NCBI RefSeq assembly: GCF_963675165.1
Contig: NC_087382.1
Coordinates: 7,364,315 to 7,428,314, forward strand
DNA length: 64,000 nucleotides
Direction: 5' to 3'
From: Halichondria panicea
Lineage: Eukaryota > Porifera > Demospongiae > Suberitida > Halichondriidae
Part shown: positions 1 to 64,000 of the stretch, piece by piece
Position numbering within the stretch: the first letter of the stretch is position 1
How the letters are laid out: each line of letters begins with the position of its first letter
Translations under genes and position numbers: made by a program
The notes under the pieces: generated by a model
What the model saw: the letters and a program-made list of their open reading frames with translations, nothing else
Database searches by the model: none
What the model was told of the DNA's origin: nothing

Positions 1-430
1 AATGTTGTGCTAGTGGTTTACACTGAGGAATAATAGGTTGTTGTTTTGAGATAATAGGCAGTGCATGCATGGCTTGTCAATGGGCATAATTTAGCTAACC
101 CCACCCCCCTACATTGGCACTTGCTAGTCTACTTCTTGCTCTCTCAACAGACATACCACACCCCCTCTTTTTAGCTGGATTAAACCACACCCACACTGTT
201 ATTATTGTAATCAACGCATGGCGGAATGAACAGGAATAGAGAATTGGAATTTGTTTGTTTTTCATCCACATAATAGGATTTTGAAAATCGTTTTCATTAT
301 TTAATTTTCATCCTCAAAATTAGATAATAATTATTGTGGCTTGTATAGATAGGGCCCGCATTTCTGTGCTGCATGTATATGTAACTAATAAACTAGAATG
401 TGCATGCAAAGTGAACAACTGAATTAAGGT

Positions 431-444
431 GGGGGGGGGGGGGG
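431..444. repeat. Poly-G tract
   Basis: Fourteen consecutive G on the plus strand lie inside the AT-rich flank. The exact length is uncertain because such runs are prone to sequencing slippage. Confidence 0.8.
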
Positions 445-770
445 CGACATAATTTGTTGGGTTTGCTTATTTGACACTTGCATGCCAGTCAGTATACTTA
501 TAGTCAGTAGCTATATAAGGTCAATGGCTTTTCTGTGCGCTTGCATGTTATTGACATGACTTAATTGTTTCAGCACTGCTATATATCGTAATTCGCTTGC
601 TCATATAATATACGGGAATTGACTAAAACAATGTTAATAAATGCAAATAAAACAAGTGACATTATTGCCAATTTTTGCAAAACTAAAGCATGTTCATGAC
701 TATACACGATAATGTGTTTCTAGGAGGAATACAACTAATTATTATGTTTCTCATGTTCAACTATTATACT

Positions 771-800
771 TCTACAAAATATATACCTCTACAAAATATA
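771..800. repeat. 13-bp direct repeat
   Basis: TCTACAAAATATA occurs at 771-783 and again at 788-800, just downstream of the stop of the giant frame. It looks like simple local duplication. Confidence 0.7.
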
Positions 801-841
801 ATGTTTTTTAAAGTTTCCAATGTCCATAAATCGTTTATTTG

Positions 842-3800
842 TTAGTTTCCAGTGAGGTTGTAAGCGGTGAACCCACTTGCTGTAGTGGCATTAGAGGCAT
901 TGCTGTTGTTGCTACTATCGTCGAGGATTACAGAAGTGGGACACGAATCTTGCAGTGTGAAAGTGGTTATATCGAGAGTAGTCGTATTGACTGTTTCGCT
1001 GAAACGGAAAGTAATCTCTCCTCTATTCAAATCCACTGAGAATGATACAAGTTCTGGTGGAGAGCTGTCTTCAGTGTAACTTGTGACTGGAAGTGCGTTG
1101 GTTCTTGGTATTTCAACAACATTATTGCCACTTGCATCTTTAATGGCCGCATCTGTGATGCTAATAAAAGTACTGGAGTTAGAGACAGCTAGTAAAGGAC
1201 GACTCTTGATCTCATTCAGGTCAGAGTTAGCAAGTCGAACGAGGATTTCGGTATTAGTAATGTAGGAGATATTATCACTTGATGTAAGAGAATATAGAAT
1301 GCTTGCATTCATTGGTGCAATGTTCCTGTACTGTAAAGTGATGGCTGATGGGTCTACTGAAGAGGCTAATACTGTCTCAGAGAATCTCAGTAACAGTGTA
1401 GAATTGTCAATATCCAAATCGAATCCAGTTAGCTGAGGCTGTATGGCGTCTGCAACAGGGACATCAGCAACTTTAATTGCCATATCTGAGAGGATTTCTT
1501 CAACTGGGTTTCCACTGGTATCGAGAACAGTGCTCTCTTCGAGTGTGATGTATGTGTTGTTTTCATTCATGGCAAGGTCTAGATTTGCTTTGATATTATC
1601 GAGATCAATCTTAACAATTTCAAACACAAGATAAGTTTGATTTACCAAAACAACCGAGCCATTGGTGAGAGAGTATGATTGACTGTAGTTGGCAGAGTTA
1701 TTGCTCAAAAAAGATATACCAGTAGGGTTAAAGGATGTTTCATTGACTGCTTCAGTGAATGTCAGTGTTACTAAACCAGAGTTGAGATCAAGGCGGAAAC
1801 CCAATAGATTTGGAGTCGTAATATCAGATGTGAATTGAGAGGCTTCCCGAGCAGAAGATCTTGGAGTCTCAAAGACAGAGTTACCATTAATGTCTGTTAC
1901 TGCAGTTGATCGAATAGAAATGAAGGTGTTTACAGAAGCATTGTTATTTCCAGATGCTAGTTCAGGTAGACGTTTAATTTCATTGAGATCAAACTGAGAT
2001 AAAGATATGAGAATAGTTGGGTCGTCCATGGAAATGATTTTTCCGCTAGTAATATTGTATTCTATTGTGCCATTAGCTTCACTAAACACCATATCACTCA
2101 GTAGCGAAATATCTGTTAGAATGACACTGTCCACAAGAACTGTCTCAGAGAATTTCAAAAGAATAATACCTTGATTGAGATCGAATTCAAAATCAAGTAA
2201 TTCTGGCCGCAGTGAATCTTCAATGACGTTCATGGCTGGTAGACTAGAGTTCATCAGTACTGCTTCTACAGGATTTCCAGCTCTGTCTGTACCTGAATCC
2301 TCAGTGAATGAAATGAATGTGTTGGATACAATTGTTCCAAGATAGACGTGTCTTTTGATTTCGTTCAAGTCCTCATCCCCAATATCGATTGTAATGATTG
2401 GAGAATGGACTGCACGAGCTGAGCTGACACCAGTTAGAGTGTAAAACGACATATTGTTCATGGGTTCACTTGATGTATTCTGGAGTGTGATGTAAGTAGT
2501 GTTCACAGAAAATGCATCTATTGTCTCATCGAATGTTAGCACAAGTGTTTCTGCAGTTAAGTTGAGAGTAAAGTTCAGCAGTCTTGGACTAGTAGTGTCA
2601 GAAATGTAGGTGTAGACGCTAGCCGCATTCATTCCAGATATCAAAGGAACATTATACTGTGGTGAAGTACTCATATCTTGTATGGTAGTATCCGATAGTG
2701 TGAGCCAAGTAGTCAAGTTGTTTCTAGCAATGTCGTTTGCCTTAATAACATTCAAATCATCGGTGTCAATGATGAGAGTGACAGAGATGTCATTGACTTG
2801 CGAGAAAAGTTTTCCTCCTGCAAGGTTGTGGGCTGTTTCGGAAGTTATTGAGTTAAACGATTGCTGAAGTGTGATTCCAGTGGGGTCCACACTAGAGGCA
2901 TTAACCGTTTCCGAGAATATTAGTGTCAAATGTCCAATGTTCATATCCAAGTGAAATTGAGCCAGCACAGGTTGAGTTGTGTCATTCAAGAAAGAAGATG
3001 CTTGAACTCCAGCTACAGGTGTCAAAGCATTCTGATTCATGTCAGCAATGAAGCTGGAAGATAGAGCCAGGTAAGCGTTAGCCATAGAGCTCAACAAGCT
3101 GGTGTTCTGTTTGATTTGATTGAGATCGTCCGTGATGATATACAGCTCAATGTGGGGTCCGTTGGTACTGTTGCTGAACACATTTGTGAGCATGAATACA
3201 ACAGAACCATTTGGCTTGTTCATGAAAGTCAAGCCCCCTATGTCTAAGCTTGATACATTTACTACTTCGTCAAAATACAGCCTAATCAAGCCAGTGTTCA
3301 GATCAAAAATGTAATTCTCCAATAATGGCTGAACGTTGTCTGGGTAGAAGTCTATTTCAATAAGTGTTTGCTCCATGTTAGGATTGAAAGCCATATCTCT
3401 CACAGCCGAAGGTAGAAGAACCAGTTGTGTACTGTCAGAACTTGTTGCAAGGTTGACGTCCAGCTTGAGGTTGTTTAAATCCATAGTGCTTAAGAAGATG
3501 GTAATGACTGTTGAGTCATTCTCAGACACTCCAGATGTTGCAGTAAGAGAAACAGAAGTTCCATTGTCTGAGGATTGAATCATGATCCTGCTAAGGACTA
3601 TATCTCGAGCAGATACAGTTTCAACGAACGTCAGGCCCAACTCTTCACTTGTGAGATTGAGGCTGAACGATTGGAGTATAGGACTGGTTGTGTCTTGTGT
3701 AAAGGCACCAGGTTGAAGACCAAGGGCATTATTGCGTGGTACTTCTATCAGAATGAGGTTTACCATGTCCGATATAACATTAGACGTGACTGAGATAAAA

Positions 3801-6800
3801 GTATTGTTGAATCTTGTCGTAAGATCTCGTATTTGCTTGATTGCATTCAAATCTTCAACTGTAAGGTTTATGCTAACCTCTGGCTGATTAAGTGTCGATC
3901 CACTTCCACCAGTTAGTTGGTAGTATGACGAAGTGTTGGTTAAGTCTGATTGCAGTGTTATATCAGTTACTTTAAGTGATGAAGCATTAACAGTTTCACT
4001 GAAAGTTAGAACAATAACTCCGGTGTCTACATTTAAGGAGAATGAGTCGAGTACAGGATTAGTTCTGTCGGGTATCACTAGGCTAGCCTGTACCGCCATT
4101 CCACCTTGCTCAGAGATATCATTTCCATACATGTCAGTAACAGATCCTGATTTCAGGAATATGAAGGTATCATTTTCATTGTTGGCAATGTCAGTGAATC
4201 GCTTTAGGAGATTAAAGTCATTTATACCGAGAGTGAGATTCAGCAGAAGTCCATTTGACTGAGTGTTGACAACAGTTGTTTCACTTAGACTCAACACTCG
4301 AGTGGATGTTGCATTGTTATCTGTGTTATGGAACTCAATGAGAGTTTTTTCTAGTGACTCAAGCAAGATGGGTTCAGAAAACACCAGTGAAACGAATGCT
4401 GAATCACCTTCTGCATTGAGTTGGAAGTAAGTCACAATTGGCTGTGTAGTATCTGGAATATATTCGGAAACATTGACAGCTTCTTGTGCCAGAATAGGAA
4501 TGAGAGAGTTTCCGGCTGTATCAGTGGGTAGCAATGAAGCAATTGAGTTTATAGAGAGGTATGCAGTAGAGTTGTCGACAAAGAGTTCGTTTGGATTGGC
4601 CAACAGTCTAAGACGATTAAGCTGCTCGAAATTCAGTGTGATGTTGATTATGTACCAATCGAAATTGCTTGCCATCAGATTTCCTGCATAAAGCAATGCA
4701 TTAGTTTGATCAGTAGTTCCAGCTACGATGGCATTAGTTCGAAGTTGTTGAAGTTGGATTTCGGTATTTGCCACACTCTCAAAGTCAATGGCCTCATCAA
4801 ATGTGAGTGCTAGTATACCAGCGTCCATATCAACTGAGAAAGTTGTAAGAGTTGGTGATGTGATATCCATATTGAATTGGTCTACTGGTTCACCAGTTAC
4901 ATTGACAGAAGGAATGAAATTCATATCCAAGACTGTTCTGGTCAGCAATGAGATGTATGTGGTGTCGGTACTCACAGCCAATTGCCTTCTGGACTGGATG
5001 TTGACAATGTCAATAAATTCAAGCTCGATAACCACTTCTAGACCATTGGGACTAGTAACAGTACCATTTGTGAGGGTGTAGTATTCACTGTCGTTGGCTA
5101 TTATGTTAGGTGTGGACTGCAGTGTAATTGCAGTGAAGTCAACACTCAGTGACCTGACAGGCTCTGAGAATACAAGAGTCAGAGTTGGTGGGTAGTTCAT
5201 GTTCAGATAATAATCACCCAATTCTGGTGGAGTCGTATCAGGAGTGAAATCTGTTACAACAACACCAACCGATTCATTAAGAGTCCTGAGTGGATTTCCA
5301 TTTTTGTCAAATGCTGTAGTGTTGACAAATCTGAGGTAGGTTGTATTGGTGTCTGTTGCCAGATCTTCCTGAAGCTTGATGTTGTTGAGATCTTCCAATG
5401 ATAGTTGTATGGTTACAACAGTGAGATTCCATATAGGTGCAAAACTAGGAGAAGTTAGCTGGTATTGAGTGGAAAAGTTACTGATGTCATTTTGCAGCCA
5501 CAACAAATTGACAGCAAATGTTGACTGCTCAATCGTCTCTGAAAAGCGGATTATTAGTAGCCCAGTGTCGAGATTGAGATCAAAACCAGTAAGTTCTGGT
5601 TGAATGGCATCTAGACTCACATTGTCAAACTGGAAGGCTGCCATGGATAGATAATTAGGTACTACATTGTTACCACTCATATCCTCAACTGTTGAATTGG
5701 AGTATGAAAGGAATGCCTCGTTCAAATTTGTGAAGAAGTTTGGTAGGCTCTTCAAAACATTGAGATCGTAATCAGTCAAGGTAAGTGTGACGATTGTGGA
5801 GTTAATTTGTGTTGATTCCCCACCACTGATTGCAAGAGAATATGGCAGCAAAGTGGACGGGTCGTTTTGGAGGATGATTTGTGTGGGATCAAAAGTACCA
5901 GCATTTACAGTCTCGGAGAATGTTACTGTAAGTAATCCTCCATTGAAATTGAATACAGCACCAATGACTTCTGGTTCGGTAGTGTCTGTGATGAATGCTT
6001 GGGCAATCATAGGTGAATTGATAGGCTCCACTCCGTTTCCAGCCATGTCGACAATGGTGCTTGTTTCAATTGCAAGGAAGGTATTGTCCTCACCAGTGGC
6101 TAGTTCAAAGTTTGCTTTTAGAGCATTTAGATCTTCATCTGATATTGTCAAATTGAATTGCTTGGAGTTCATCTCAGAAGTACCACTGGATGCGGATAAT
6201 CGATAGTAACTTGTGACATTCACAGTAAAGATTATGTCACTGTAAAAAACAAGGCCAGTTACATTGAGACTGAAAGTGTTTACTGCTTCAGTAAAGTTCA
6301 GAATAATAATGCCCATGTTTAGATCAAACACGAAATCGTACAACTCAGGTGGTGTTATGTCAGGGATATGTTCTCCAGAAAGTTGGACTTCCTCAATAGC
6401 AATACCATTCATGTCTCTCACAAAGCTAGTGTTGAGATTGAAGTATGTATTATTCTCATTTGTGGATAGCATTTCCTGTAGCTTGATAGAGTCTAAATCG
6501 ATCTGGTCCAAATAGATATCAATGACAGTGCTGTCTTGAGTCGAAAACGTGCTTGTCTTTAGAGTATGAGATTGTGTAGGTGATTGAATACTGCTCTGAA
6601 CAGTGAGATACTCCACAACTACTGATGATGAATTGACTGTCTCATCGAACACAATTGTCAATATCCCTTCATTAACATCCAATGTGAAGTTTGACACTAA
6701 TGGTGGTGTAGTGTCGGCAGTAAATAGTCTCACTCGAGTAGGGTTACTGATATTGACATCAATGATTGGGTTGTTAAAGGTATCTTTCACTAGTCCAATG

Positions 6801-9800
6801 CCAAAGATGAGGAATGTTGTTTCATTGGCTGTGGCAAGGTTACTGGTTCTCTTTATCTCATTCAAATCAGTCACTGTAAAGTTGAGATGGATGATAGTGT
6901 CGTCAATGGGTGAGATGCTACCAGATGTTAGTGAGAAAGAACTATAAAACAATGTGGAAGTGGTGTTATCACTTGATACCAAGGTAACTTCTGATGTATT
7001 GAAGCTTTCATAGTCAACAATTTCAGAAAATGTGAAGGTTAATACGCCACTGTTCAAGTCCGCATCGAAAGATACAAGACGTGGTTCAGTTGAATCCACA
7101 GTGAAGTTTGTGACTGCAAGAGATGAGTTGGGGAATATTTCAGATACTCTATTGCCAGCCATGTCAGAAATGGCATCTTGAGTGAGAGAGAGGTAGCTAT
7201 TTTGCAGGTTAGACGCCAGAGCTCTGAGCTGGTTGATGGCATTGATATCACTCACTGACAAGAAGATTGATACTTGAGTACTGTTCTCCATACTAGTATC
7301 AGACTGAGGTCCAAGAGTGTAATTCTCAGTTGACATTTGCATGTCATTGTGCAGGGTCAATGAAGTGACATCAATACTCTGAGCGTTGACTGTCTCGCTA
7401 AATGTTAAGTATACAATTCCGAGATTCATATTGATGTTGAATGATAAAAGTACAGGGCTGTTTTCATCAGGTACAAAGGCTTGTGGTTGAATTGCTGTTT
7501 CTTCAGAAATTCCTACTAGGTCATTTTCAGCTGAGTCTGCAACATTTCCATTTCTAATTGATAAGTAAGTGTTTTCAAATCCTGTTGTGAGGTTGGTATT
7601 TCGTTTGATTTCATTCAGATCGTTCGCCACAATGAAAACAGTTATTTCCAGGCCATCTATAGAGCGAGTTACCTCTCCTCCACTGAGTGTCAGAATGTTA
7701 ATGGATTCTTCAAAAGTAGCATTGCGGCTAGCTTGAAGAGTGACTCCAGCTGGATCGAATGTAGACTGATTAACAGTGTCAGAGAAGGTTAGTGTAACAG
7801 TACCAACATTGAGATCAAGAGTATAATTGAGTAGCATTGGTGGTACATTGTCAGGAATAAACTGCTCCACAATGATCGCCTTGCCATCAGTAATTGGAGC
7901 TACATCAATACCAGCTGTATCATCTATGAGGAAAGCTGCAACGGTGATGTACGTGTCATTGCTGTTTCTTGCTAAGCCAATATTAGACTTGAGTCTCAAG
8001 AGATCGAAGTTTGACAATTCCAGGACAATGACATAGCTGTTAGCGCTGTTGGTGATGCTGCTAGCAGATGGCGAAAATACTCTTCCATCCGAGCGATATT
8101 CATTGTGTTGTAGTGTGATAGCTGTTGCATCGAATGTAGAGGAGTCTACAACATCATCAAATGAGAGTGTGATGATTCCTACATTCTGGTCATATATGAA
8201 CGAGACCAATGAAGGCCTTGTCTGATCAGGGGTGAATTGACTGACAGGCTCACGGTTTACAGGGATAACAGAAGTGCCAGCTGTATCGAAGAATACTTGA
8301 CTATGGAACGAAAGGAATATGTTCTCTGGTGTTGTTGCAAATGTCTGGTCAACTTTGAGTGCTGTGATATCAGGCCGCACTAAGTTGAGGGGTATAATCT
8401 GCAACCCTGTGATGCCATCACTGTAAACAAGGTCACATCCAGTCAGAGATAGTTCAGAAAGTCCAACAGTAGTAGTTCTCATGTTGTACAGTGTGATTCC
8501 TCCACAGTCAATGCTGTCAGGATGGATAGGTTCATTGAAAGTTAAGGTTAGAAGATCTGCATCGAGGTCCAAGCTGTATTGTAACAATTTGGGTGAAGAA
8601 ATATCAGGAGTATAGCCATTAGATTGTACTGGCAGGGCCATTTCAGAGAGGATTGCTTCAACTCTGTTAGGACTGAAAGCATTGTCCGAAATAGAAAACT
8701 CGGTAATAGAGATGAAAGTGTCATTTACACCCTTTGCAAATACAGAGGCCTTGAGAGCATTGAGATCTTCAGTTGTTATGTTCATTACTATTACTATGCC
8801 ATCAGGACTCTCTGTACTTCCACCAGTTAGTGTGTATGATAGCACAGGATCTGTTGTGTTCAATTCACCCTGGATTGTAAATTCTGACGGTTGGAGAGAG
8901 GAAGCACCAACAGGCTCATTGAAAGATAGTGCTAGTAATCCTTTGTCCAAGTCAATGCTAAATTTAAGCAACTTCGGTCCAACTTCATCTCTACCATAGG
9001 ATCTGACTATATATCCAGGTGCATCATTTGCTACAGGAACAATCAGATTTCCAACCATATCTACAACAAAGTTGGAAGTGAAAGAAATGTAGCAGTTTCC
9101 ACGGTGTGTACAGAGCTGGTCATCTGACTGTATCTCATGAACATCTTCAGGCAATAGCATAAATGTGATCACATTATTATCTGTGTTATTTGTGATGCCA
9201 CCAGTTAGATTGAAAGTTGAAAATATGGGGTCAAACAGATCCATGAGAGTGATGGCAGAGAAGTCCAACGAGGTCGCATTTATTGTTTCAGTGAAAGATA
9301 TCGTGATGTAAGTTGTTGTATCAAAGTTTATAAGTGTGAACTCAGCAATCTTTGGATTAGTGGTATCAGCTATATAGGCATCCACTGGGTAGGCTTCACC
9401 ATTAGGTACTCCATCAATAGGAATGTCTACCATATCTCTCACTGAGTCATCTTCAAAGATGAGGTAGCAATTGTCCAGTGACTCACAGAATCTCTCACGC
9501 TTGATTTCGTTCAGATCATCTATACTGAGAGTGACTTGCACTGTTGCAGAGTTGTGTAACTGCACCATGCTTGTGAGTGTGTGGTTGGCACGGATTCTTG
9601 TGCTGTTGTCTTGCAGGGTAAATAGGTTGATCATCAGAGTGCCTACATTGACAGTTTCATTGAAGTGGAGTAACAAAATACCAGCATCCATGTCCAAATC
9701 AAAGGATCTTAGTTCAGGTCTCTCCATATCTGGTGTGAACAGTGTTACTTGAACAGCACTTGCAAGGGTGATTGTGAAGAATACATTTCCAGCATTATCC

Positions 9801-12800
9801 CTTAGAGTATCACTAGTAGCAGTGAAGTATGTCGTTGAGTTAGAAACGGCAAGTGTTTCTCTTGCCTTGATCTCATTCTTGTCTGTGACTGTTATGATGA
9901 TTATGATCACAGGTCCATCCATTGATACTACTTGCCCACCAGTGAGAGAATATGTTGTATTGCCATCCATGTTATTGACGAGAGTGATGCCAGTTGGATC
10001 AACTGATCTGGCATTGACAGTTTCAGTCAAGTAGAGAGTAAGCTCTCTTGTGCGCATGTTCAAATCAAAGGCATCAAGAACAGGTCTGGTTGTATCGGGA
10101 ATGTATTCACTTACTCGAGTTGTGATAGGTAGTGCATCATTTCCAGCTAAATCATTTACAACATTAGGCTGTAGAAAAATGTATGATGTTAATTGAGTTT
10201 GTGCTAGTGAGGTGAGTTGTTTCAGCTCGTTCAGTTCGTCCAAGGTTAAATTGAGTTGTATCTTGTTCCCACTCAGTTGGATAGCAGAGGTGTTTTGACC
10301 GAGAGTAAAATTCTCAGTGGGGTCAACGTCTGAGTTGAGGAGAGTTATTCTTGATATCACAAGTGAATCAAACGTGACATTTTCAGAGAACACCAACAAG
10401 ACTTGGCCGACATTAAGGTCAAGATTGAAGCTGTCCAGTGACGGTGGCACAATGTCAGCATCATTCATTCCAGTAAGTAGAGCAGGTGTAGAAATTTCCA
10501 CAACTGGAAGATTTGCCATATCCGCTACTGCAGAGGTTGTTATACTGAGATAAGTGGGAGCCACAAAGTGGCCAAGTGGTGGGAGCATCCTGATAGCCTC
10601 TAGGTCACTGCTATTGACCGTGATTGTGATATCTGTGGAATCAATAAGGCTCACACTTCCACCAGTGAGAGTATACTTCTCAGTTACATCAGTATCATTG
10701 GCAGTAGTCCTTAGAGTAAATTGCCTAGGATCAAGTGAAGAAGCCCTCACAGTCTCTGAAAACGTCAATATGAGTAGCAACGGTGGAAGGGTATTGCTCA
10801 TATCCAGTCTGAAAGAAACTAGCACAGGATTGGTGGAATCAATTGTGAATCTCTCAACAAGTAGGGGAATAAATTGACCACCGACAAGATTTCCTGTGGT
10901 ATCAGAAACGAGAGTTTCCGTGAATGTTAGGAAGGTGTTATTCTCATTTGTAGCAAGAGTAGTGATTTGCTTGATTCTGTTGAGATCTTCGTCAGACAGA
11001 GAAATAACTACAACTGGTCCATTGCTACTGACTGAAGCAGATTGATTAGTTAAGGCATGTTGAGGAACCAAAATATCATGCAGCATGACTTGAGTCACAT
11101 CTAATGATTCAACATCAACCGTTTCTGTGAAATAAAGAGTGAGTTCACCAGCATCGAGATCTAAATCGTACATCACCAGTTCAGGATTCACAGTGTCATT
11201 CACAAGCACTGTTGCTTGCAGTGCTGCATCCACTGAAATAGTTTGGATAGCATTAGCATTCATATCAAGTAGAGTTGAGTTGTCAAGAATGATGAAAGTG
11301 TTTAGAGCACTTGTTGCTAAGCTCGAAATATTTTTGATGAAATTGGCATCCTCAGTGCTAAGAATGAACGATACGATATGGCTGTCACCACTGGTTAGAG
11401 CACCTCCAATAAGTTGCCTCTGTGGAAAGAATCTTGAGGGTCCACCAATCAGTGTAATTCCTGTGAAGTTGAACTCAAGGACACTGACTGTCTCAGAGAA
11501 GTAGAGAAGGGTTGTATCATTACCCAGGTTTATGTCAAACCTCAGTAGTTTTGGTTGCGTTGTGTCCATCACGTAGCATGAACTATTGACATTGATAGCA
11601 TTTGAGCTCACTACTGCAGCTATAGGGTTTCTAGCATTGTTGTCATACACCATACCTTCTCTAAACAAAATGTACGTATTCAAGCCAGTTGTTGCAAGAT
11701 TTCTTTGACGCTTAATTTCATTGGAATCTACTGTTGTTATGTCAATCCTCACAATGATTTCATCAATTGAAGAAACATTCCCTCCAGTGAGTTCATATTC
11801 TGCAGCTAGTGAGTTACGTCCACTACGGAAGGCAATAAAGCTAGGATCAAGCGAAGAGACATTAACAGTTTCAGAGAAGGTAAGCTCAAGATACGGTGAA
11901 GTGTCTAGATCGAGGCAGTATTGAACGACTACAGGTGCTGTGAAATCACGATTGAAAGAGAACACAGGTTGAGCATCAAATGTCTCAATTGCATTGATAG
12001 GATTGTCACTCATGTCTCTTACAGTGTCAGCAGTCAGTTGTAGATAGGTATCGTTTAGTGATGTTCCAAGCATGATCATGGCCTTCAGTTCATCAAGGTC
12101 AGTTTTGGTGAGAGCAATGGTGATTACAACTCCGGTTATGTTGGGTGTTGGAGTTCCTCCAGTTAGTCTATATACTTCAGAAGCATTGGCAACATTAGGA
12201 GTGTTTTGAAGAACTATTTGAGTCAAGTCAAGGGATGTTACATTGACAGCCTCACTAAATATGAGCACAAGAACTTCAGAGGTGATATCAAGAGAGAACC
12301 TTGTTAGATTTGGATTTGTCACATCGTTTCTGAGCAGTGAGACTTGAAGTGCGTCGTCATCTAAGATGGGAGCAACAGCAGAACCTGCCACTTCATCAAT
12401 TGTTGCTGCTCGGAGTGACAAGAATGTATTGTTTCTCTCTGTAGCAAGTCCATCTCTCATTTTGATGTTATTCAGATCGTCGTCAGCTATGTTAATGGTG
12501 ATAGTGTATCGATTCATGCTGTTACTCGACCCACTCGTTAAGGTGTATGAATCAACTGGATCAAGCATAAACTGATCATTTTGAAGAGTAATGAATTCTG
12601 TATTGAGTGTGTCCACATCTACAACGTCGTTGAACGTGAGGATAAGTTCAGCTGTGTTCATGTCCAGCTCGAATGCTAGAACAACAGGGTTTGTGGTATC
12701 TGGTACAAAGCCTCCTGGTATTACGTTGATAGGTGGCTCTTCAGTCACTGGATTTCCGGGTGCATATGCATTGCCAGCCAAGTCAAAGATAAAGCCTCTC

Positions 12801-15800
12801 TGGAATGAAATGAAAGACGATGACTGATCAACTGCAAGATCTTGTCTAAGCTTTATCTCTCTCAAATCAGAATTGCTGAACGCAATTTCAATGACTTCCT
12901 CAGTTGCAGTGACGTAGGAAGCATTTCCTCCAGTGAGATTGAACACTCCGTCACCGAGAACATTCCTGTGCAAAGAAATCAGATCGAAGTAGACTAAAGA
13001 GATGTCGACAGGCTCAGAGAAAGCAAGATTGATGACACCTCGATTCATGTCCATCAGAGTGAAAGTAGTCAGCTGTGGTTCTATGGAGTCTCTAGTGAAG
13101 CTACTGACTTGCAGGCCATTATTCTCTGAAATGGCTGCAACTGGATTGCTGCTTGTGTCAGTGACAAGCATATTTGTTAAAGTTAAGTAAGTGTTGTCCA
13201 CAGATGTTGCAAGGTTTTCCAATGCTTTAATAGCGACAACATCAGAATCTCCAAAGTTAATAGAGTCAACAATTTCAAATCGGATAGATGGTAATCGTTC
13301 AGTGGTATGAACAAGATCATTCTGGAGTGTGAAACGCACGGTTGCATTTGATCCGTTGTTTTGCAGTGTGATATATCTTGACTCAAATACAGTGTACTCC
13401 ACTGTCTCGCTGAAGTAGAGAGTGATGATTTCTAAGGTGAGATCAATGTTCCACGATAGCAGTTCAGGAGAAGAAGTGTCTTCTGTAAATATAATTGGTG
13501 TTGGTGAGTCATCTAGGCTGCGAGTGTCATTCACTGCAGTAATTGAATTGCCAAAAGTGTCTCGAGCAAATGTAGAGTACAGACGCAAGTGACAGTTAGT
13601 AGAATCAGTACACAGTCTGGTATCGGCCTTGATTAAGTTCAGATCATCATTAGTCATTTGAATAACTACTAAATTGTCATTGGTGGAGTTGACTGTACCA
13701 TCACTTAGCATAACAGAGGAATCGGAAGCTAATAGGAAATTTTGCAGCCTCAGAGATGTAACATCAATAGTGGATGCATCGATAATTTCCTCAAAGAGTA
13801 TCATCAATATTCCAGAATCCAAGTCAAAGCGGACAAACTGGGTTACAAACGTAGGCGATTGATCCTGAGTGTAGATGAGTGGGGGGATTGCTTCACTGGA
13901 GGTAATTGGGATCACTGGATTGTCCATTGTGTCATTTACGAGGAGCTGTGTATGCGAGAGATAGCAATTGGAGCCATTAGTGCAAAGAGTAGCTATCTTT
14001 GTGATATTATCCCGATCAGACTTTGACAAATCAATAATGAGAATGTCACTGGACACCAGAGGATTCTCAAGTGTTCCGCCAGATAGACTGTATACAACAG
14101 TAGCCTCTGGTGTGCGCAGATCTGAGAATGAAATTTCAGTGACGTCAAAGGTGCTAATGTTCACCGTCTCAGTAAATGATAGTGTGAGTGTGGCCAGTGT
14201 GAAGTCAATCTGGAATGAGACAAGTTCTGGTCGTATCATGTCAAAGCCAAATCTGTTCACTTGCTGAGCATTGTGTGATGGGATAGATACAACGGCATTA
14301 CCACTTCTGTCTTGGGCAAGTTTTTGAGTGATAGAAATGAAGGTATCACCAGGATACGTAGCCAGGTCGTCATATCTCTTGAGAGCATTCAGGTCGGACA
14401 AATTCAGATACACCTCCACTACAGAAAACTCTGTTCTGCTGTAGTCACTTAGTGAAGTAATAATGAATGACCTCGTTGGAGTAGTCATGAAATTCTGTAG
14501 TGTAATCTCCGTAATGTTGATGAGAGGATTCACTGTCTCCGAGAAATATAATACTAGAGTGCTGTTTTCCAGGAACAAATCAAAGCTCACAAGTTCTGGA
14601 TTGGTCACATCTGGGAATACAAAGTCAGCTGGTATTGCTTCATCATCATTAACCATGTAAACATTTGTTCCAGCCATGTCCCTAATGAAGAGTCTTGAAA
14701 GGGAAAGATAGGCATTATTAGTACTGGTTGCAAGCTGCGTGAGATCTTTGAGCGCATCCAAATCATATCTACTGAGATTTAGAACCATCAGAATGCCATC
14801 AGGGTAGACAGCTTCACTCATGATAGTTGGTGAATAGAATTCAGTCTCTAGAGAAGAGTTGAAATGATTTTGCAGTCTCAACAGTGGCGGTTCGAGTGTG
14901 AGATGGTTAACTGCTTCAGAAAAGAGCATGTGTATGAGTCCATCATCAATTGAGATGTTCCATGATATGAATCGAGGCCTAGTTGAATCAACAATGTATT
15001 GGAAGACAGGACTAATGAGTTCTAGGTTGCCATTTCCAGCTGTGTCAAATACTACGTCATCTGCAAAGAATACAAAGGTGTCATTTTCACCTGTAGCCAA
15101 TCCTGTATCAACCTTGATTTCATTGAGGTCATCGTCCGTGATATTGAGATACAGTACCTGATCATTCTGCAAAATGACACTGCCACCTGTCAGATAGTAC
15201 TCAGTGTTTGGCATCATGACAAAGTCGACAAATCTGACTCCAGTAATGTTCAATGATGATGCTAGAACAACTTCACTGAACGTTAGACTCACGAAACCTC
15301 TGTCAGCATCAAAGAGGAATGCAACCAGTATAGGAGGCTCGGTATCAGCAGTAACATTGAGTGCTCTCAGTCCAGATCCATCAGGTACTGATCGGATTAT
15401 ATTGGCTGAATAATCTTGGGTTGTTGAGTTTGTGAGAATGACATGAGTATTGTTGATTTCAGTGGCCAGACCAACAATGCGCTTAATGTTATTGGCATCG
15501 GCAACACTCGGCAGTAAAGTGTAGATAGGATGATAGAGGCGATCGATGTCTGTTGGAGTGATTGTACCCATGTCTCTCATGGTGTAAAAGAGGTTTCCTC
15601 CAGTGGATGGGTCGCTAGAAATTGTGATCTGAGTGAAATTGAAAACCTCGAAATCAATCACTTCATCAAATGTAAAGTAGAACATTTCAGGTGTTCTATC
15701 GAATGTGAACTCCTTTAGCATTGGTCTTGTGATATCAGGAATGAGAGCACTTGTTTGCAATGCTTCACTGATGTCTATTTCTGTAACAGAGTTGTTTTTC

Positions 15801-18800
15801 AAGTCAGTTACGAGTGAAGATGTGATAGAAATGTAAGTGGATTGAGTATCGATTGCTAAAGTTCTACTGATCTTAATTGAGTTAAGATCGTCAGCTGAGA
15901 GCAGTATGGATACAACACTTGAGTCGTTTCCAACAGGAGTACTGGATCGCAGTGTGTAGTATTGTGTGAACTGATTCAATGACCTTCGATTTTGTATTGA
16001 GATCTGAGTGACATCAACAAAGCTGATTTTCACAGTTTCACTGAAGTTCAGATAGAGCCATCCGCTATCGATATCCAGAATGAATGATTCTAAGACAGGA
16101 GAGGTGCCATCTGCTGTGAAGTTAGTGACCCCAATTGCCATTCCTGAAGGTGTACCGTCAAAATTGATCTCAACAATGTCCTGAACCGATTCAAATGGTA
16201 TTTCAAGGTAGGTATTCGTTTCGGATGTGGCCAGATCTATGTTTGCCTTGATAAGATTCATATCTGACTCTGTAAACGTTATGGAGATGACTTTTCCATC
16301 ATCAGACTGTGCTATCTCTCCTCCAGTTAGAGTGAATAAGATAGCAGACGGATCACTTGTGTTTATAGAAGATGACAGGGTGAATTGAGTTATATCGATA
16401 GAACTTGCATTCACTGCTTCATTAAAGGTGAGTATAAGAACGGCAGCATTCATATCAAGGTCAAATCCATCAAATAATGGTGCATCAGTGTCTTCAGTGA
16501 ACTCATTCACCTGGAGAGCTTTTCCATTTGTGACTGCCAGAACGTCAACTCCGAATGGATCATCAACAGCAGAAGCAAGCATGCTGAGATATGTAGTGTT
16601 TCTACTGGAAGCTGTAACTCCAATACTCTTCAGTCTGAACAAATCAACTGGTCCGATAGTAACATTGATGAAATAGCCTGTGACTTCAGATGCTAAACTA
16701 GAGCTAGTGAGAGTATAGGAGACACTGGGGGTTGATAATTCGGCATGTTGGATAGTAACTGCCTCAACTCTGAATGTACTTGCATCTACTACATCGCTGA
16801 AGGTGAGCATTAGCTCACCAACATTCACATCAAGATTGTAAGACATCAGCATAGCTGGAACAGTGTCAGCTTCAAGCAACCCTGTGCCAATAATTACTTC
16901 TTCACTGAACAATACAAATCCTGTATCCATTGCTAAGCCAGGAGATGCACGAATATTGGTTGATCTTGCTGATTGACCAAAAACTGCATTCGTCTTGATA
17001 GCTACAATGTCTGGTTGTGTGAACTCAATCTGTATGATAACGGAGCCTTCACTAGAAGTAGCAGGGAATGGTGTTACTATGCCACCAGTGAGAGGAATGT
17101 ATGATTCAGCAATAGATTCATTACCAATAAGGGTAAGACTTGTTGCATCAATGGAGGAGATCAGTACAGACTCGGAGAATGTCAATGTCAGTATATCAGC
17201 GTCCAGACTCAGAGAGAACGAGGAAAGTGTTGGAGGGGAGTTGTCAACCAAGTATTCAGCAGCTTGTAAGGCATTATCAGATGGAATAGGAACAATGCTG
17301 TTGCGATCAAGAGACACATCCTGGAAAGCAAAACTGTCCACACTAATGAACGTGTTGGTCACATTCTTGGCGAAATCAAGTGCTTGGATGGAATTAAAGT
17401 CAGCACTGCTTAGTGAAAAGCTCACGATATGAGTGAAGGTATTTCCAGTGGATCCTCCTGTGAGTGTGTACAATGTTGTTGAGTTTACACTGCCTTGCAA
17501 GTGAATACCAGTTGGATTGATCTCATTCTCATCAACAGGTTCATCGAAAGTGAAGATTATAGTACCGTTATCAGCAACGAATGTAAAGTTCAAGAGAACA
17601 GGTGACAAGGTGTCTCTGATAAATTCCATGGCTATTAGTCCAGGTGCCTGACCCAACTCCTGAGGAATCACATTGTTAGGTGTACTTGCTTTATCAGTGA
17701 TTAAGTCAGTTGTGAAAGTAATGTAACACGATCCTTGTGTCGCACACAGATTCAACCGCTGTTGAATAGCAATAAGGTCTTCGGTAGTGAAAATTATCTG
17801 GATCTGTGTGCCATCCATACTCGGTGTGTAACCACCTGTTAGGGTAAAATTGGAGAGCGGATCTTCGTACAGAGAAACAAACGTAAGCTGAGTAGCATCG
17901 AAACTAGCTGCAACAACTGTCTCCGAAAAGGTAACATTTATGTAGCCTCTACTTAGATCAATGGCAGTAAACTCAACAATGGATGGTGGTGAAGAGTCTT
18001 GTATGGTTACACCAGGTAATTCTTGAGTTAATTCAATTGGAATACCAATGCTGGGATTCTGACTTGCATCAAGGACAGATGCATCATTAATTGTCAAATA
18101 ACATGCAGTTGGATTGCGACAGACTTCCAGCCTTGATATTTCATTGAAGTCAAAGTCTGACAGACTGATATCAACCACAGGTCCATGAGGTGTTATTGAG
18201 CTACTGGATGTGAGCGAATGTTGTAGTGCTGTGTTGTTGTTTGGTTCTGCATACAATGTCAGACCGTCAACCATTAGCGAGCTCACATTGACAGTTTCAG
18301 AGAAGTATAGGGTCAGAATTCTTGAATTCAAATCGAGTATAAACTGTACTAACTCAGGAGACCTGGTGTCATTGCCAAATGTAGATACTCTCAAAGCATC
18401 TGATGGTGGGACTGTAATAAGAGGAACACCATTAGTGTCAGCAATAGCATATGCTGCAATGGCTAGGTAACTGTCTTCCATAGTAGTGTACAAATCAGTG
18501 AATTGCTTCACTCTGTCCAAGTCTGCATTAGTGACTTCAATTTCAATTATGGTTCCAGGTGGAGACGTCGTACTACCAGCATTTAAGTTCACACTTGATG
18601 TTGGTTGGCGGTTTCTGTTCTGAAGAGTGATGCCAGTATAGTCTAGAGAAGCTGGATCAACTGATTCCGAGAAGTACAGAGTCAAAATTCTTGTTGTGAG
18701 CATGACATCAAATGATAGCAGTTCAGGCCTTGTTCGATCTTCCACATAGTTTGATACCCTACGAGCATTGGTGCCAGGAATTTCACCAGATGGATTGGAG

Positions 18801-21800
18801 GCAAAATCAAATACAGCACCGCTCTGTATTGAGAGGAAGGTGTCATTACTCGATGTTGCTAGGTTGAAGTCAGCCTTGATAATATCTTGATTGGATTGAG
18901 TGAGAAGAATATCAGTAACACTCTGATTCACACCGTACGATACACTGGCATTTCTCGATAGCATAATATAACTACTGCCAAGGATTGTGTCGTCTTGTAT
19001 AGTGATGTAGTTAACAATCAGTGTCTCAAGGAGGACATTTTCGGTCCAGGTAAGAGACAGAATTCCAGTGTTTAGATCAAAATATAGTTCACTAATCTGT
19101 GGAGCCGTGAGGTCTACATCATAGTTGCGGACAATGGTGCCATTTACAATGGAAATTTCAACTATGGGCTGTCCAAAGTTGTCAAACACAGCACCACTTG
19201 AGATCGATAAGAAAGTAGATTGCTGAGATCTTAGGAATCCATTCACATTGATGATTGCTTCAAAGTCATCATCAAGCACTGCTATTTGAATGGTGTCATC
19301 TGCAATCTTTGTGACATTGCCTCCCGTTAGAGTTCGAACTGCATCTGAGGAAGACGCATCACGGACACCTTGGAAAGTGATACCAGTTACATCCAAAGAG
19401 GAAATGTTGATGCTCTCTGTGAACTGGATCCTCAGTAGAAGTGGTCTGCGAACATCATTAGTTAATGCAAGATCAAATCCCATCAATTCCGGACTGGTAT
19501 CATCAGTTTCAAAGAAAGTTACTATCGTTGCGTTCTCAGGTGCAATTTCTTCCACTTCGTTGAGGTTGGTATCCATGATCAAGTCACTACTAAAGGAGAT
19601 GTATGTCATCTGTAAATCTACTGCCAAGTCTGTGATGAGATTAATGGCATTCAAGTCTGTTCGAGATATATCAATCACAACTACAGCGCCATCAGGGGAG
19701 TCAGACAGGCTTCCTTCAGTTAGAGTGTAACGACTTGTACCAGGCTGTCCATTGAGGAGGGTTATAGCAGACGTGTTCAGAGTAAAGAGCAATACAGATT
19801 CGGAGAAAGAGAGTGTGAGCTCTCCGGTATTAATGTCAAGATTGAAAGAATCTAGAGATGGAGCTTGAGTATCTTGAACAACTGGTCTAGCTTGTCTGGC
19901 AGCTATAGGAGGTAGTGCTAGCACAGGATTACCACTAGTGTCAACAATAGTAGACATATCTACAGTGATGAATGAGTTACGAGAGCGGGTAAAGATATTT
20001 GGAAGCACTTTCAATGTGTCAATATCCAGTCTTGCCATTAAGAAAGTAATTTCAGTTCCATCTTCAGAAAGAAGTGTTCCATTTGTCAAATTGTATATTG
20101 TGGTAAAGTTGATGGGATGGTCAAAAACTGAAATACCACTAACATCCAGTGAAGTAGCACTTACAGTCTCGGTGAATGTGAGAGTTATGAGAGCAGTGTT
20201 CAAGTCGACATTAAATCCAGTCAGAGCTGGTGGTGTTGTATCGTTGGTGAAACCAGAGGCTGGGAATGCATTTATCTGACTGATTGCTTGTATCTCATTT
20301 CTGCTAGAATCTGATACTGCTCCTTGTTCAAAGTAAAGCCAAGTGTTGGAGAGCTCGGTAGCAAGGCTAAGCCTAGCTTTGATAGCATTTTGATCAGCAT
20401 TGGTTAGCTGTAGTTTCACAACGACATCATGATCAGCAACTCCAATACTCTCTCCGAGTTCGGTGTCATTGATGGAAGCTGCTCCACCTGTGAGAGTGTA
20501 TTCTGAAAACTCAGGGAGAAATGGATTCGTGACTCCATTGACTAGCGTGAAGAGAGATGAATTGAGAGAAGTGACGTTCACAGACTCAGAGAAAGTGAGA
20601 ACGATCAGTCCTTCATTGAGATCAAAAGTGAAACTTCTCAATACGGGCTCAAGCATATCTTGTGGTCCCATTTGTACCATGAGTGGTGGACTTTGGAAGC
20701 AAGGGTTTCCTGCCATATCATCAATTGCACCTTCAGTGATTATGAGGAAGCTATCATTTAAATTCTTCAGTAGTTCAGTTCTCTCTTGGATGGAGCTGAA
20801 GTCTTCAAATGTGAGGAACAACTCAAAATTAACAGCTGTTATGTTGGGGAAGGTCTGACCTTCGCTCAGTGTGAACAACTGAGTTGCAGTAGTCAGACTA
20901 TTTGAATTGAGCACAGTGATTCCACTTGGAACTAGAGATGTAACATTGACTGCTTCAGAGAAAAGCAGAGAAATAGACCCAGTTTCAGCATCGTATGACC
21001 ATGCTACCAAGGTTGGCCTGGTTGTGTCTGGAGTATAATCGCAAGCTTGAATGAGTGAAAAAGTAGCAGGTAAGTTGCCAGTATCACGAATGACAAGGGC
21101 AGAGACACTGATATAGGTGTCAGAAAAGTTTGTAGCTAGCATATTCCTCATCTTTATTTCATTCAAATCGGATTCCACAATAGTGAAGTTGACATGGAAG
21201 CCATTACGACTTGGTGACATACTGCCATGAGTGAAGGTATACATATTCTCTGGCTGAGATGCAGCCAAGTCATCAGTTTCAAGTAGAGTTAGGGCATTAG
21301 ACATGAATGATGAAGGATCGATAACATCATTAAATGTTAGTCTAATAAATCCAAGATCCATATCCAAGGAGAAGCAAATCAGCGATGGCTGGATCACGTC
21401 CTCTTCGTATACACCTACTCGAATGGCAATTGGTGAGCCTGTGTCATTTGTGGTTCCGATAACAGGGTTTCCAGAAGTGTCGGTCACTGCACCGTCAGAT
21501 ATTTCCAGATATGATGTCAATATATCATCAGCAATACCGGGTGTTCTCTTGAGCTCAGTGAGATCAAATTCTGAGATGCGAACAATCAAGGTACTGCCAC
21601 TATCCACTGCAAGTGATTGGTTACCTCCAGTGAGAGTTGTATTGATACCATCGATAGACTGGGAGCGGATGATGAAGAGACTAGGAATATACGAGTTGAC
21701 AGAGATTGGCTCTGAGAATCTCACTGTGAAGGAGTTAGACTGCAATGAGAGAAGAGTGAATTCTGTAACTCTTGGTAGAATGTTATCAGCGACATAGCTG

Positions 21801-33800: not shown

Positions 33801-36800
33801 ATGGAGATACCAATACCTCCAACAGATTTGATTCCATTCAGGTCTACCTCAGTCAAATCGACTGAAATAAAGTAACCGTCCATAGTGGTAGTAAAGTAGC
33901 TTGCAGTTGTGAGGCGATAGAAAGTGTTACCAACACTACTGAAAGCTGATTGAAGGACAATTCCAGTTGGATTGAAGGTCATTACAGATACAACGTCGTT
34001 GAAGGTCAGGTCTAGGAATCCAGTCACCATATCTAGGGAGAACTCAACAAGACTTAGTTGAGAAACATCAGCTGAGAACGAAGCATCCTCTGTTTGCATT
34101 GGGGACACTGCATTGATAGCGACACCACCTACATCTGTAACTGCTCCGCTGGATATAACCACATAGGTATTGGACGAATCTGTAGCGATATTCGGGTTGG
34201 TTTTCAGAGCTATAATCTCATTTGATCCAAGAGCAATTGTAACCCTGTGTACTGTTGAGATGTCACTGCTAATCACTATTGATGTAGAGAGAGGCACAGC
34301 ACCAATTCCAGACATTGATCCAGCAATAGAAATTCCGGCAAGATTGATATTTTCAATGCCAATAGGCTCATCGAAGACAAGCGTTATTGTATCAGCATTT
34401 AAATCTACTTCGCTACCAATGAAAGTTGGTGGAATCTGGTCTGAAACGAAACCTCCATTCATTGCATCGATGGTCATCACTGGATTTGATTGGCGAGCCA
34501 GATCATTTATGGTATTCTCGGCAATTGATATGTAGGTATCAACAATAGAAGTTGCTAAGTTCAAGTTCTTAATGGCATTAGAATCAGTAGCTGATAGAGT
34601 CACAGAGACAATTCTTCCTGAACCACTTGTGGTAGTACTATCTGTGAGAGTGTATTGCTCAGTTCCATTGGGAGCATTTAACAAAGTTATTCCAGATGCT
34701 ACCAGGGTACTAGAATCAACTGCTTCTGAGAATGTTAGATCGAGAGTATTGCTATCGAGATTAAGAGCAAAATTTCGGAGTTCTGGATCTTGATTATCCA
34801 CAACAAAGTCACTTACAATTGTTTCGGGATCTTCGTTGGTTGCACTGTTTACATTACCAGAGGGATCTTCAACAGCACCAGGAGTGAGTGCCACATAACA
34901 GTTACCTCTCCAAGTACACAGATCTTGGTCAACTTGAAGGGCTGTTACGTCTCTCTCATTCAATTGAATACTGACAGAGTTTTCACTAACTGAGGCTTCC
35001 CCTCCTGTTAGAGTGTAGTTGCTGATTGCATCAGCCACAGAAAAGAGAGAGAGGAGCTGAATGTTTGTCGGATCAAATGTAGAGATGTTTAGAGGTTCAC
35101 TAAACAGAAGTTCAAGTACCCCAAGTTGAATATCAAATGATGTGAAACCAACTAACTGAGGAGCAACAGAGTCTTGCAGATACATTGTGACCTGTATTGA
35201 CTGATTGAGAGACCCAATATTAAAAACATCCCTGAATGCATCTGCACTATGGTAGAGAAAGCAGTCATCCACTGAATCACACACATTTTCTCTCTTGATA
35301 TTGTCAAGGTCAATTGGGTTCAGATTGAAGGACAAACTGTTTATTGTTCCATCAGGATCCACTACAGTGGCGACAAAGTTGTAGAAAGCTGTTGGCATGT
35401 CAGCTCTGTTCTGGATTTGGAATCTTAATAGGTCAAAGGAAGACGCCAAAATATTTGAGTCAAATGTAATACTCACAAACCCAGAATTGAGATCTAGTTC
35501 AAAAGCAGACAATGCTGGTGCATCCATGCCACTATTCACGGTAGTAGCTTGCAAAGCTGGAACTGCCACCAGTTGATTGTTATTTCTGTCCACTGCAGCT
35601 CCAGCACTCACTGCGAGATAGGTGTTGCTAGGACTTGTAGCAATATCCATATTCCTGACGATATTATCCCTAGCTGTTAGAGTTAGCTCAATGCTGATAA
35701 CTGCTGAGTTGTCAATTGCAGTGATAGGTGTTCTAACATCTGCCAAACCAAACGTTACCACAGGAGAAGGAGAGTCTTGAAGAATGAACTGATCAAGTTG
35801 TAGGCTACTAGCAACAATGGGCTCCGAGAATGTTAGAATGATTGCATTTACCCCAGACGAAAGGTCAACATTGTACCTGATCAGCTCAGGTGGCACATCT
35901 GTTTCAGGAGTGTACTCCGAGGCCTGAATAGCATTTGTAGTAGCAATAGCAAAGTTCACATGTCCGTCAGTATCTTTGATCAATCCTTCACTCGCTGACA
36001 AAAAAGTAGTAGATATGTTTCCAGCAAGGCCTACAACAGATCGAATTCCAAAGAGGTCTTCTTCGTTTGCTGGGACGTAAATTGTTGTAGGTGAGATTTG
36101 GATAGCGTCACCACCAACAAATGTATATGATGGAGTTCCAGAAAGAGCAATAGGTTGAGACTGTATTGTGAGGTGAGTAGCATCAAAGGTAGATGCAACA
36201 ATCTCTTCAGAAAAGTTAATAGTTATGTTTCCATTTCCCAAATTGAAGGTGAATAAGAGCAGTGTTGGGGGTTCAAGGTCCACTAATGGTGGTGATACTG
36301 GTAGTGCAAGAGTAGATGGAATTTCCTGTACCATTACTCCAGAAACATCGCCAATAGCATTGTTTTCCAGGCTTAGGAATGTCCTTGTTGTATCAACTCC
36401 TATCCCATCAATGGAAAGGATTCCAGCCAAGTCAGAGTTGCTTAGCTGGATGGAAAGTGTATCACTGAAGAGCGTAGGCACAGTACTGGACAATAAGTTG
36501 TAGCTTCCACTCATTGAAAGTGTATTATCGGAGATGTTTTGCAGCAAAAGTCTGTTCAGCATCAGAGATGATGGGTCAACAGGCTCAGAGAAGTAGAGGA
36601 CTACTGCAACAGGTGCTTGATCATCCATTGTATATGCAAATGCAAAAGTATTAAGAACTGGAGGAGTGTTGTCAGGAATTAGAGTCTGAACGTTCACAGG
36701 ATTTAATGCACCAATGAGGTTCCCACGAATATCTAATATGCTTCCACTATCAAGAATTAAAAATGTATCAGCACTGTTAATACCAATATTTCCAAATGCC

Positions 36801-64000: not shown

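What the first reader, a model, noticed from the sequence alone, without database searches (positions are those of the whole stretch)
842..64000. A single exon of more than 63 kb encoding more than 21,000 residues
The frame is open for 21,052 codons and is not finished at the window edge. From memory, the largest well-known animal exons (titin ~17 kb, MUC16 ~22 kb) are far shorter. Only a few giant genes, such as the PKZILLA polyketide synthases and some giant bacterial genes, are in this range. Because every unit keeps the same motifs and no stop or frameshift has accumulated, this is a maintained protein and not a chance frame.
Basis: partly seen in the sequence, partly recalled or inferred. 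Interest (0 to 1): 0.9.

Follow-up and report, generated by a model that had tools for sequence, protein, structure and literature searches.

The report
Giant single-exon sponge repeat protein
The window holds half of a real, very large animal (almost certainly sponge) gene whose protein of about 41,600 amino acids is written almost entirely in one uninterrupted stretch of about 125,000 bases, and whose repeats have kept their order in related genomes.

Summary
Confirmed, and about twice as large as reported. The minus-strand frame is open from window 845 to 64000 (21,052 codons) and runs on outside to 41,557 codons without stop or N. It holds 335 divergent ~124-residue units covering 96%. It is not an assembly concatenation: units average 28% identity (maximum 51%), and 47 homologous fragments, each one collinear match, tile 99.998% of it. 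Named relatives are sponges. A head-to-head neighbour outside the window, gene B (16,087 codons), is a second array. A ends, and B begins, with complementary half units, conserved in the relatives seen. B's only odd-cysteine units are its first and last; its last cysteine is in 14 of 14 positional orthologs. Most likely: secreted acidic fibre proteins of the sponge surface or matrix. A single-exon sponge protein of 49,014 residues is already in print (PMC10282587, passages), so the size class is not new; I did not find the family, its frozen order or its paired ends in print (listings). RNA, structure and localisation are untested.

The parts
845..64000 (-). Gene A, C-terminal 21,052 codons of a 41,557-codon frame (the rest lies to the right of the window, to C6:7489829)
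842..844 (-). Stop codon TAA of gene A
   Evidence: same end in the near-identical copy P0001 and in P0002
834..839 (-). AATAAA, possible poly(A) signal just after the stop
   Evidence: read from sequence; function inferred
845..1069 (-). Terminal half unit (profile positions 2-60; a full unit is about 124), ends ...YNLTGN, one unpaired cysteine
845..63673 (-). Units 167-335 (169 units, the last one a half) of the 335-unit array; consensus D-TTPPeL-F-LDLn-g-LtLtFsEtVn...YtLTGg...DLNaIK...NTYlsi...D--GN
34532..34774 (-). Unit region that matches Pfam Big_5 (PF13205) in the one piece above the gathering score (30.8 bits, cut-off 23.6)
1..841 (.). 3' flank of gene A; no downstream exon with unit sequence found

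Best explanation
Shown: the window is the C-terminal half of a real open frame (gene A) in a genome whose named relatives at this gene are sponges; about 41,575 residues and 4.48 MDa, all but the first few residues in one frame of ~124.7 kb, made of 335 divergent units whose order is conserved in related sequences; beside it, head to head, lies gene B (16,085 residues from its ATG, 1.76 MDa) made of about 130 of the same units. Inferred: both are secreted, acidic, N-glycosylated, rod-like extracellular proteins built of Ig-like (Big_5-like) beta-sandwich units, working as very long matrix or cell-surface fibres, titin-like in architecture but outside the cell. Their ends are specialised: A ends with the first half of a unit, B starts with the second half, and B's two end units carry a cysteine without a partner in the unit, so the ends probably serve assembly (covalent and perhaps split-domain joining). 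The half ends arose most simply by fission of one ancestral array at an intron lying at the LTG|G point of a unit, where a third locus of this genome has an intron by sequence.
For: Open frame and length. Units, coverage and divergence. Fragments tile 99.998% of A and 99.97% of B; 80 of 155 homologs are positional orthologs (best score at least 1.3 times any other placement), each scored on one collinear match. Named sponge relatives: Geodia barretti, Ephydatia muelleri, Corticium candelabrum, Dysidea avara (positional), Oopsacas minuta and Amphimedon queenslandica (not positional). Secretion: B has a hydrophobic N-terminus, as do the 3 positional relatives that reach it; a phase-matched signal-like candidate exon lies upstream of A; sequons exceed all 30 composition shuffles (A 755, mean 635, max 697; B 382, mean 269, max 291) and pI is about 4.05. 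Cysteines sit mostly at profile columns 86 and 92, 70 each. Half units: joined they score 99.9 bits, 39th percentile of 459 units, and they are as conserved as full units. B terminal GCR cysteine in 14 of 14 positional orthologs reaching it. Intron at LTG|G in the third locus.
Against: Big_5 passes its cut-off in only 1 of 12 pieces, and no Pfam family matched more than 1 of 32 single units. No membrane anchor was seen by eye at A's end. The unpaired cysteine at A's end is missing in many orthologs, and B's first half has only two cysteines in P0023. The sequon excess of A is modest, and the shuffle ignores the unit motif. Many relatives are fragments whose ends may be contig ends, frameshifts or introns. 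No control was run for the joined half units beyond natural units.
Confidence: 0.6

Rival explanations
1. The locus makes many shorter products: internal promoters, alternative splicing or proteolytic cleavage cut the array, so no 4.5-MDa chain exists.
For: Some relatives seem split at shared places (P0128, P0133 and P0145 start at A 14682-14696, the first two ending at 21327-21328; P0137, P0140, P0141 and P0143 start at A 22541-22598 and end at 28921); the third locus of this genome is split by an intron.
Against: In this genome the frame has no interruption and no stop, and all of it is covered by positional orthologs. The shared ends may come from several assemblies of one species.
Confidence: 0.2
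2. The half units at the end of A and the start of B are only relics of gene fission and have no joint function.
For: The split point equals an intron position in the unit, so fission explains it without function. The joined score is close to the sum of the two halves (56.8 and 41.6 bits), as complementarity alone would give.
Against: The halves are conserved as well as whole units (A 0.568 against 0.463-0.593 in eight neighbours, 13 relatives; B 0.489 against 0.364-0.623 in nine neighbours, 3 relatives).
Confidence: 0.5
3. The array is an assembly artefact made by concatenating repeats.
For: Only that repeats are involved.
Against: Best pairwise unit identity 51% over 430 units and no excess similarity at lags 1-8 in A; the tandem repeat finder sees no array in the window; positional orthologs keep the order; a near-identical copy P0001 matches the last 708 residues at 99.6%.
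Confidence: 0.02
4. It is an intracellular titin-like scaffold rather than an extracellular fibre.
For: Architecture of hundreds of small units in a row.
Against: Signal-like starts, sequon excess, cysteines at two fixed columns; no I-set, fn3 or kinase domain in 12 window pieces scanned.
Confidence: 0.08

Closest known systems
Aphrocallistes vastus Avas.s016.g412.i1 (PMC10282587; passages seen)
   Same: Sponge; one giant protein (49,014 residues, 5.34 MDa) encoded by a single 147-kb exon.
   Different: The passages give no domain content, so common descent with gene A was not tested; A is somewhat shorter and comes from another genome.
Uncharacterised sponge proteins: Geodia GBAR_LOCUS9167/9168, Ephydatia EMCRGX_G018692/G018702, Corticium LOC134193700/LOC134194325, two of Dysidea avara, Oopsacas LOD99_2129, Amphimedon A0A1X7T080
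   Same: Same unit; those of Geodia, Ephydatia (these two), Corticium and Dysidea are positional orthologs of parts of A or B.
   Different: Listed as proteins of 0.7 to 7.6 thousand residues without a function; Oopsacas and Amphimedon are not positional by the 1.3 rule, nor are Ephydatia G017629 and G017625.
Big_5 bacterial Ig-like domain (PF13205); CopC domain (PF04234)
   Same: Big_5 passes its cut-off in 1 of 12 pieces and is just below in 2; CopC passes in 2 of 12 and is below in 1. Homologs carry the Big_5 label in 6 of 96, 1 of 60 and 15 of 83 rows.
   Different: Nine of 12 pieces show neither at the thresholds used; the conserved DLN-IK stretch is, from recall, not a Big_5 feature.
Titin (recalled)
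   Same: Hundreds of small domains in one chain of megadalton size.
   Different: Hundreds of exons, intracellular, I-set and fn3 domains, kinase; none of these domains in the 12 pieces scanned here.
PKZILLA synthases (size recalled; mentioned in passages of PMC12300183)
   Same: Comparable size.
   Different: Enzymes with polyketide synthase modules; no such domain in the 12 pieces scanned.
Giant bacterial adhesins of repeated Ig-like domains (recalled)
   Same: Would work alike: a long extracellular rod of Ig-like repeats.
   Different: Bacterial export signals and calcium-dependent linkers were not sought; no relative in the one genome-contig scan, which rests on six short peptide patterns.

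Membership tests
Sponge giant-array family (orthologs of A and B) | Collinear match at least 1.3 times better than any other placement | tested here: met
   80 of 155 homologs: 47 on A, 33 on B; the other 75 fall below the ratio
Big_5 (PF13205) | Score above Pfam gathering cut-off | tested here: inconclusive
   1 of 12 pieces of about 1000 aa above cut-off, 2 more just below; 1 of 32 single units at E 0.044
CopC (PF04234) | Score above Pfam gathering cut-off | tested here: inconclusive
   2 of 12 pieces just above cut-off (24.9 and 23.7 against 23.3), 1 below; no single unit of 32
Big_5 / Ig-like fold | Beta-sandwich fold of the unit | not testable with these tools
   Structure prediction switched off; PDB sequence searches give one chain, 8gsy_A, at E 0.39 and 0.28
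Titin / connectin | I-set or fn3 domains and kinase | tested here: not met
   No such Pfam match in 12 pieces of window sequence, about 12,000 of 41,557 residues; the rest was not scanned
PKZILLA-type synthase | Polyketide synthase domains | tested here: not met
   No such Pfam match in the same 12 pieces
A. vastus single-exon giant | One exon over 100 kb | tested here: met
   Open frame of 41,557 codons, DNA level only
A. vastus single-exon giant | Sequence relationship to Avas.s016.g412 | not testable with these tools
   No sequence or domain content in the passages seen; no A. vastus protein was named
Secreted protein | N-terminal signal peptide | tested here: inconclusive
   Hydrophobic start in B and in 3 of 3 positional relatives reaching it; candidate exon for A; no signal-peptide predictor was run

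The most novel reading that the evidence does not exclude
A and B are obligate partners: the first half of a unit at the end of A and the second half at the start of B fold together as one split Ig-like domain, so that two giant proteins made from divergent genes join head to tail into a fibre of about 465 units, with B's invariant terminal cysteine linking fibres. This two-gene fibre would have kept its order and its split joint since before demosponges and homoscleromorphs parted (the A side of the joint is seen in Corticium, the B side in Dysidea).
Probability: 0.2. Interest if true: 0.88.

Novelty: new member of a known kind. Interest (0 to 1): 0.63.

Why it matters
It puts a second sponge gene, and a family, beside what was one sentence about one glass sponge: very long single-exon genes may be an old, conserved feature of sponges. 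Each of hundreds of paralogous units has stayed in its place, which poses plain questions about how a frame of 125 kb avoids recombination between units, is transcribed, translated and secreted. The paired half units and end cysteines give a concrete, testable idea of how such fibres join. Public gene models hold the family as fragments without a function, so it has been easy to miss.

Tried and rejected
Chance frame: rejected, since the other five frames carry 522 to 2,203 stops. Tandem-duplication or assembly artefact: rejected. Further exon downstream of A completing the last unit: a profile search of six-frame segments over about 298 kb gave only two chance-level matches (E 0.44 and 0.78), both on the strand opposite to gene B, and relatives stop at the same place: of 18 proteins whose best match passes A 41450, one is the near-identical copy P0001, one (P0148) is neither positional nor ends there, one (P0028) ends before the point, and the other 15 end 3 to 13 residues after the YTL-like strand. 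Of these 15, P0019 is not positional by the 1.3 rule (ratio 1.03), some look like copies from close or same species (P0007, P0009, P0010), and some ends could be contig ends. Fusion of the neighbouring kinase to B: rejected by eye, it has its own start and a short intron of its own (kinase domain). Exon boundaries of relatives clustering at LTG: looked at; ends scatter, with several near columns 53-61, but match ends are biased to loops, so nothing is claimed. Prokaryotic origin by close relatives: the one genome-contig scan with the 999-residue query found none, which does not exclude distant ones. NCBIfam: one weak match below its cut-off (YPDG repeat, 17.6 against 40 bits) in 6 pieces. Single-unit Pfam scan: 20 families, each in 1 of 32 units, best E 0.0025, taken as chance. 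Transcript evidence: P0109 (source eukprot, name in the style of a transcriptome ORF) is a homolog of 7,574 residues but not positional (score ratio about 1.1); its species is not given. Naming the species of the window: not possible with the collections at hand.

Full report
THE OBSERVATION. The other five frames hold 522 to 2,203 stops each. Adjoining stretches show that the frame continues to C6:7489829, a total of 41,557 codons stop to stop, with no N in the 214 kb examined; a separate search of the genome reports the same open frame without stops. At 124.7 kb it is nearly twice what the window shows.

WHAT THE FRAME CONTAINS. A profile made from the units finds 335 of them in gene A, covering 96.4% of the frame, spaced 124 residues at the median with a range of 112 to 138; the largest gap between units is 46 residues. 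The consensus begins D-TTPPeL-sF-lDln-g-LtLtFsEtVn, runs through YtLTGg and DLNaIK, and ends NTYlsi-----D--GN. Over 430 full-length units of A and B, units of A are 28% identical on average and the best pair of all is 51%, with no excess between neighbours of A at lags 1 to 8; the tandem repeat finder sees no array in the window. The array is therefore old and each unit is unique, which also makes an assembly concatenation very unlikely.

THE 5' END AND THE NEIGHBOUR. The first codons of the frame carry no methionine. Upstream, an ATG at C6:7491933 opens a hydrophobic peptide of signal type whose donor site has the phase required by a TTAG|GT acceptor at the start of the frame; it was picked by eye from 17 hydrophobic segments listed and is a candidate, not shown. 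Downstream, AATAAA follows the stop closely and no unit sequence was found. Head to head with A, about 5.5 kb from it, lies gene B at C6:7495370-7543630 on the plus strand: 16,087 codons, an ATG at codon 3, a hydrophobic start, and about 130 units of the same kind (134, 131 or 130 by profile and cut-off). The gene after B is a protein-kinase gene with, by eye, its own start and a short intron. A third locus of the family lies about 5 Mb away on the same contig, with frames of 10,065 and 6,172 codons; the capped list of 100 matches shows no fourth locus. Between these two frames lies an intron of about 340 bases by sequence, with a GTGAGT donor and a CTACAG acceptor, that cuts a unit at LTG|G in phase 1.

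RELATIVES AND ORDER. Searches of the large protein collection with the last 999 residues, with 5,000 residues further in, and with a piece from the far end of the window gave 96, 60 and 83 proteins, partly the same ones; each search scored only its best candidates by shared words. P0001 matches the last 708 residues at 99.6% and ends at the same stop; it is probably another assembly of the same or a very close species. Of the other 155 proteins from the first two searches, 80 have one placement on A or B that beats every other placement at least 1.3-fold. Together they cover all but residue 1 of A and all but residues 1-5 of B, each scored on one collinear match. Examples on A are P0108 (2-7576, 66.7%), P0104 (8239-15624, 52%), P0112 (15289-22272, 42%), P0113 (19552-27167, 48%), P0126 (23721-30656, 51%), P0118 (26397-33514, 41%) and P0098 (33526-41510, 44%), against about 30% for second placements. 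These seven are unnamed; named sponges cover parts: Geodia A 39022-41526, Ephydatia A 20125-21726, Corticium A 35194-41529 (37%, ratio 1.38) and B 10146-16083, Dysidea B 19-6383 and 8411-16085. Since Corticium is a homoscleromorph and the others demosponges (recalled), the order of at least these units was set before those lineages parted. Fragments of A and of B lie on contigs of the same length in Ephydatia (gene numbers 18692 and 18702) and in Corticium, which suggests that A and B are old neighbours.

THE ENDS. The last unit of A stops at its middle (profile 2-60), right after YNLTGN; of 18 proteins reaching this place 15 stop 3 to 13 residues after the same strand, and the other three are accounted for in Tried and rejected. 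B begins, after its hydrophobic start, with the other half of a unit (profile 60-124), as do P0031, P0023 and Dysidea P0117, the three positional relatives that reach it. Joined in a script, the two halves score 99.9 bits (56.8 and 41.6 alone), at the 39th percentile of 459 natural units scoring above 40: together they cover one complete, ordinary unit. No other control was run. The halves are conserved like whole units: for A, over the first 42 residues of each unit, 0.568 against 0.463-0.593 in eight neighbours, in 13 relatives (12 positional, and P0019 at ratio 1.03); for B 0.489 against 0.364-0.623 in nine neighbours, in 3. Cysteines are rare and sit mostly at profile columns 86 and 92 (70 each). 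Only 6 of 335 units of A and 2 of 130 units of B have an odd number; the two in B are its first and its last, and A's last is among the six. Of 17 proteins whose best match reaches B's end, 15 have the closing GCR cysteine: the 14 positional ones (ratio 1.5 or more) and P0053 at 1.29; the two without it are not positional (ratios 1.07 and 1.01). Some of the 15 look like close or same species. Against a general rule, A's terminal cysteine is absent in many orthologs and B's first half has only two cysteines in P0023.

HOW IT PROBABLY WORKS. Inferred: signal-like starts, an excess of N-glycosylation sequons over all 30 composition shuffles (A 755 against a mean of 635, B 382 against 269), cysteines at two fixed columns, and a pI near 4.05 point to a secreted protein. 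The unit resembles the bacterial Ig-like domain Big_5, which passes its cut-off in 1 of 12 pieces scanned and falls just below it in two; CopC passes in 2 of 12. Homologs carry the Big_5 label in 6 of 96, 1 of 60 and 15 of 83 rows. At about 4 nm per Ig-like domain (recalled) 335 units would span roughly 1.3 micrometres. I take A and B for fibre proteins of the sponge matrix or cell surface. The half units arose most simply by fission of one array at an intron at LTG|G, the point where the third locus has an intron. That they are still conserved suggests use, perhaps as a split-domain joint between A and B; this is the boldest reading and is not shown.

WHAT IS KNOWN. The glass-sponge genome paper PMC10282587 states that the largest protein of Aphrocallistes vastus has 49,014 residues and 5.34 MDa and is encoded by a single 147-kb exon (passages); a second look for that gene in its main text found this one place only. 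So a giant single-exon sponge gene is not new. The listings show no other paper that describes this family, its conserved order or its paired half ends; only listings were seen, and the library lacks most subscription papers. Titin, PKZILLA sizes and bacterial giants are comparisons from recall.

LIMITS. Pfam was run on about 12,000 of the 41,557 residues.

Noticed in passing
C6:7495370-7543630 (outside the window, loci L008-L013): Gene B: head-to-head open frame of 16,087 codons of the same unit, with a signal-like start; central to the account.
   Followed up: yes
C6:2384237-2430840 (L026 covers 2411900-2414700): Third locus of the family, two giant frames (10,065 and 6,172 codons) separated by a short phase-1 intron at LTG|G of a unit.
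   Followed up: partly
C6:7550145-7553201 and C6:7563141-7565882 (L017, L018): Two long simple-repeat blocks open in several frames on both strands (VTTVTTVT / HCNNCNTC patterns).
   Followed up: no
L017:5368-9813 and L020:2184-7172, minus strand: Two single-frame ORFs of 1,482 and 1,663 codons with Chlamydia-PMP-type repeats in Pfam, near the contig end.
   Followed up: no
L014:2536-3483 and C6:7361236-7362081, minus strand: Two similar neighbouring frames; the first matches the glutamine synthetase catalytic domain, the second shares its sequence in part but was not scanned.
   Followed up: no
window 431-444 and 765-800: A run of G and a 17-base tandem duplication in the 3' flank of gene A.
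   Followed up: no
proteins P0139, P0144, P0146-P0153, P0154: Other proteins with the same units carry the labels PF01833 (TIG, recalled), in P0139 also PF03160 (Calx-beta, recalled), and in P0154 PF00020 with a cysteine-rich end, so the unit also occurs in other architectures.
   Followed up: no
Geodia barretti GBAR_LOCUS9167/9168 (P0034, P0003): A public annotation holds an ortholog of gene A as two short neighbouring models (A 39022-40100 and 40158-41526), so the family is hidden in databases.
   Followed up: partly
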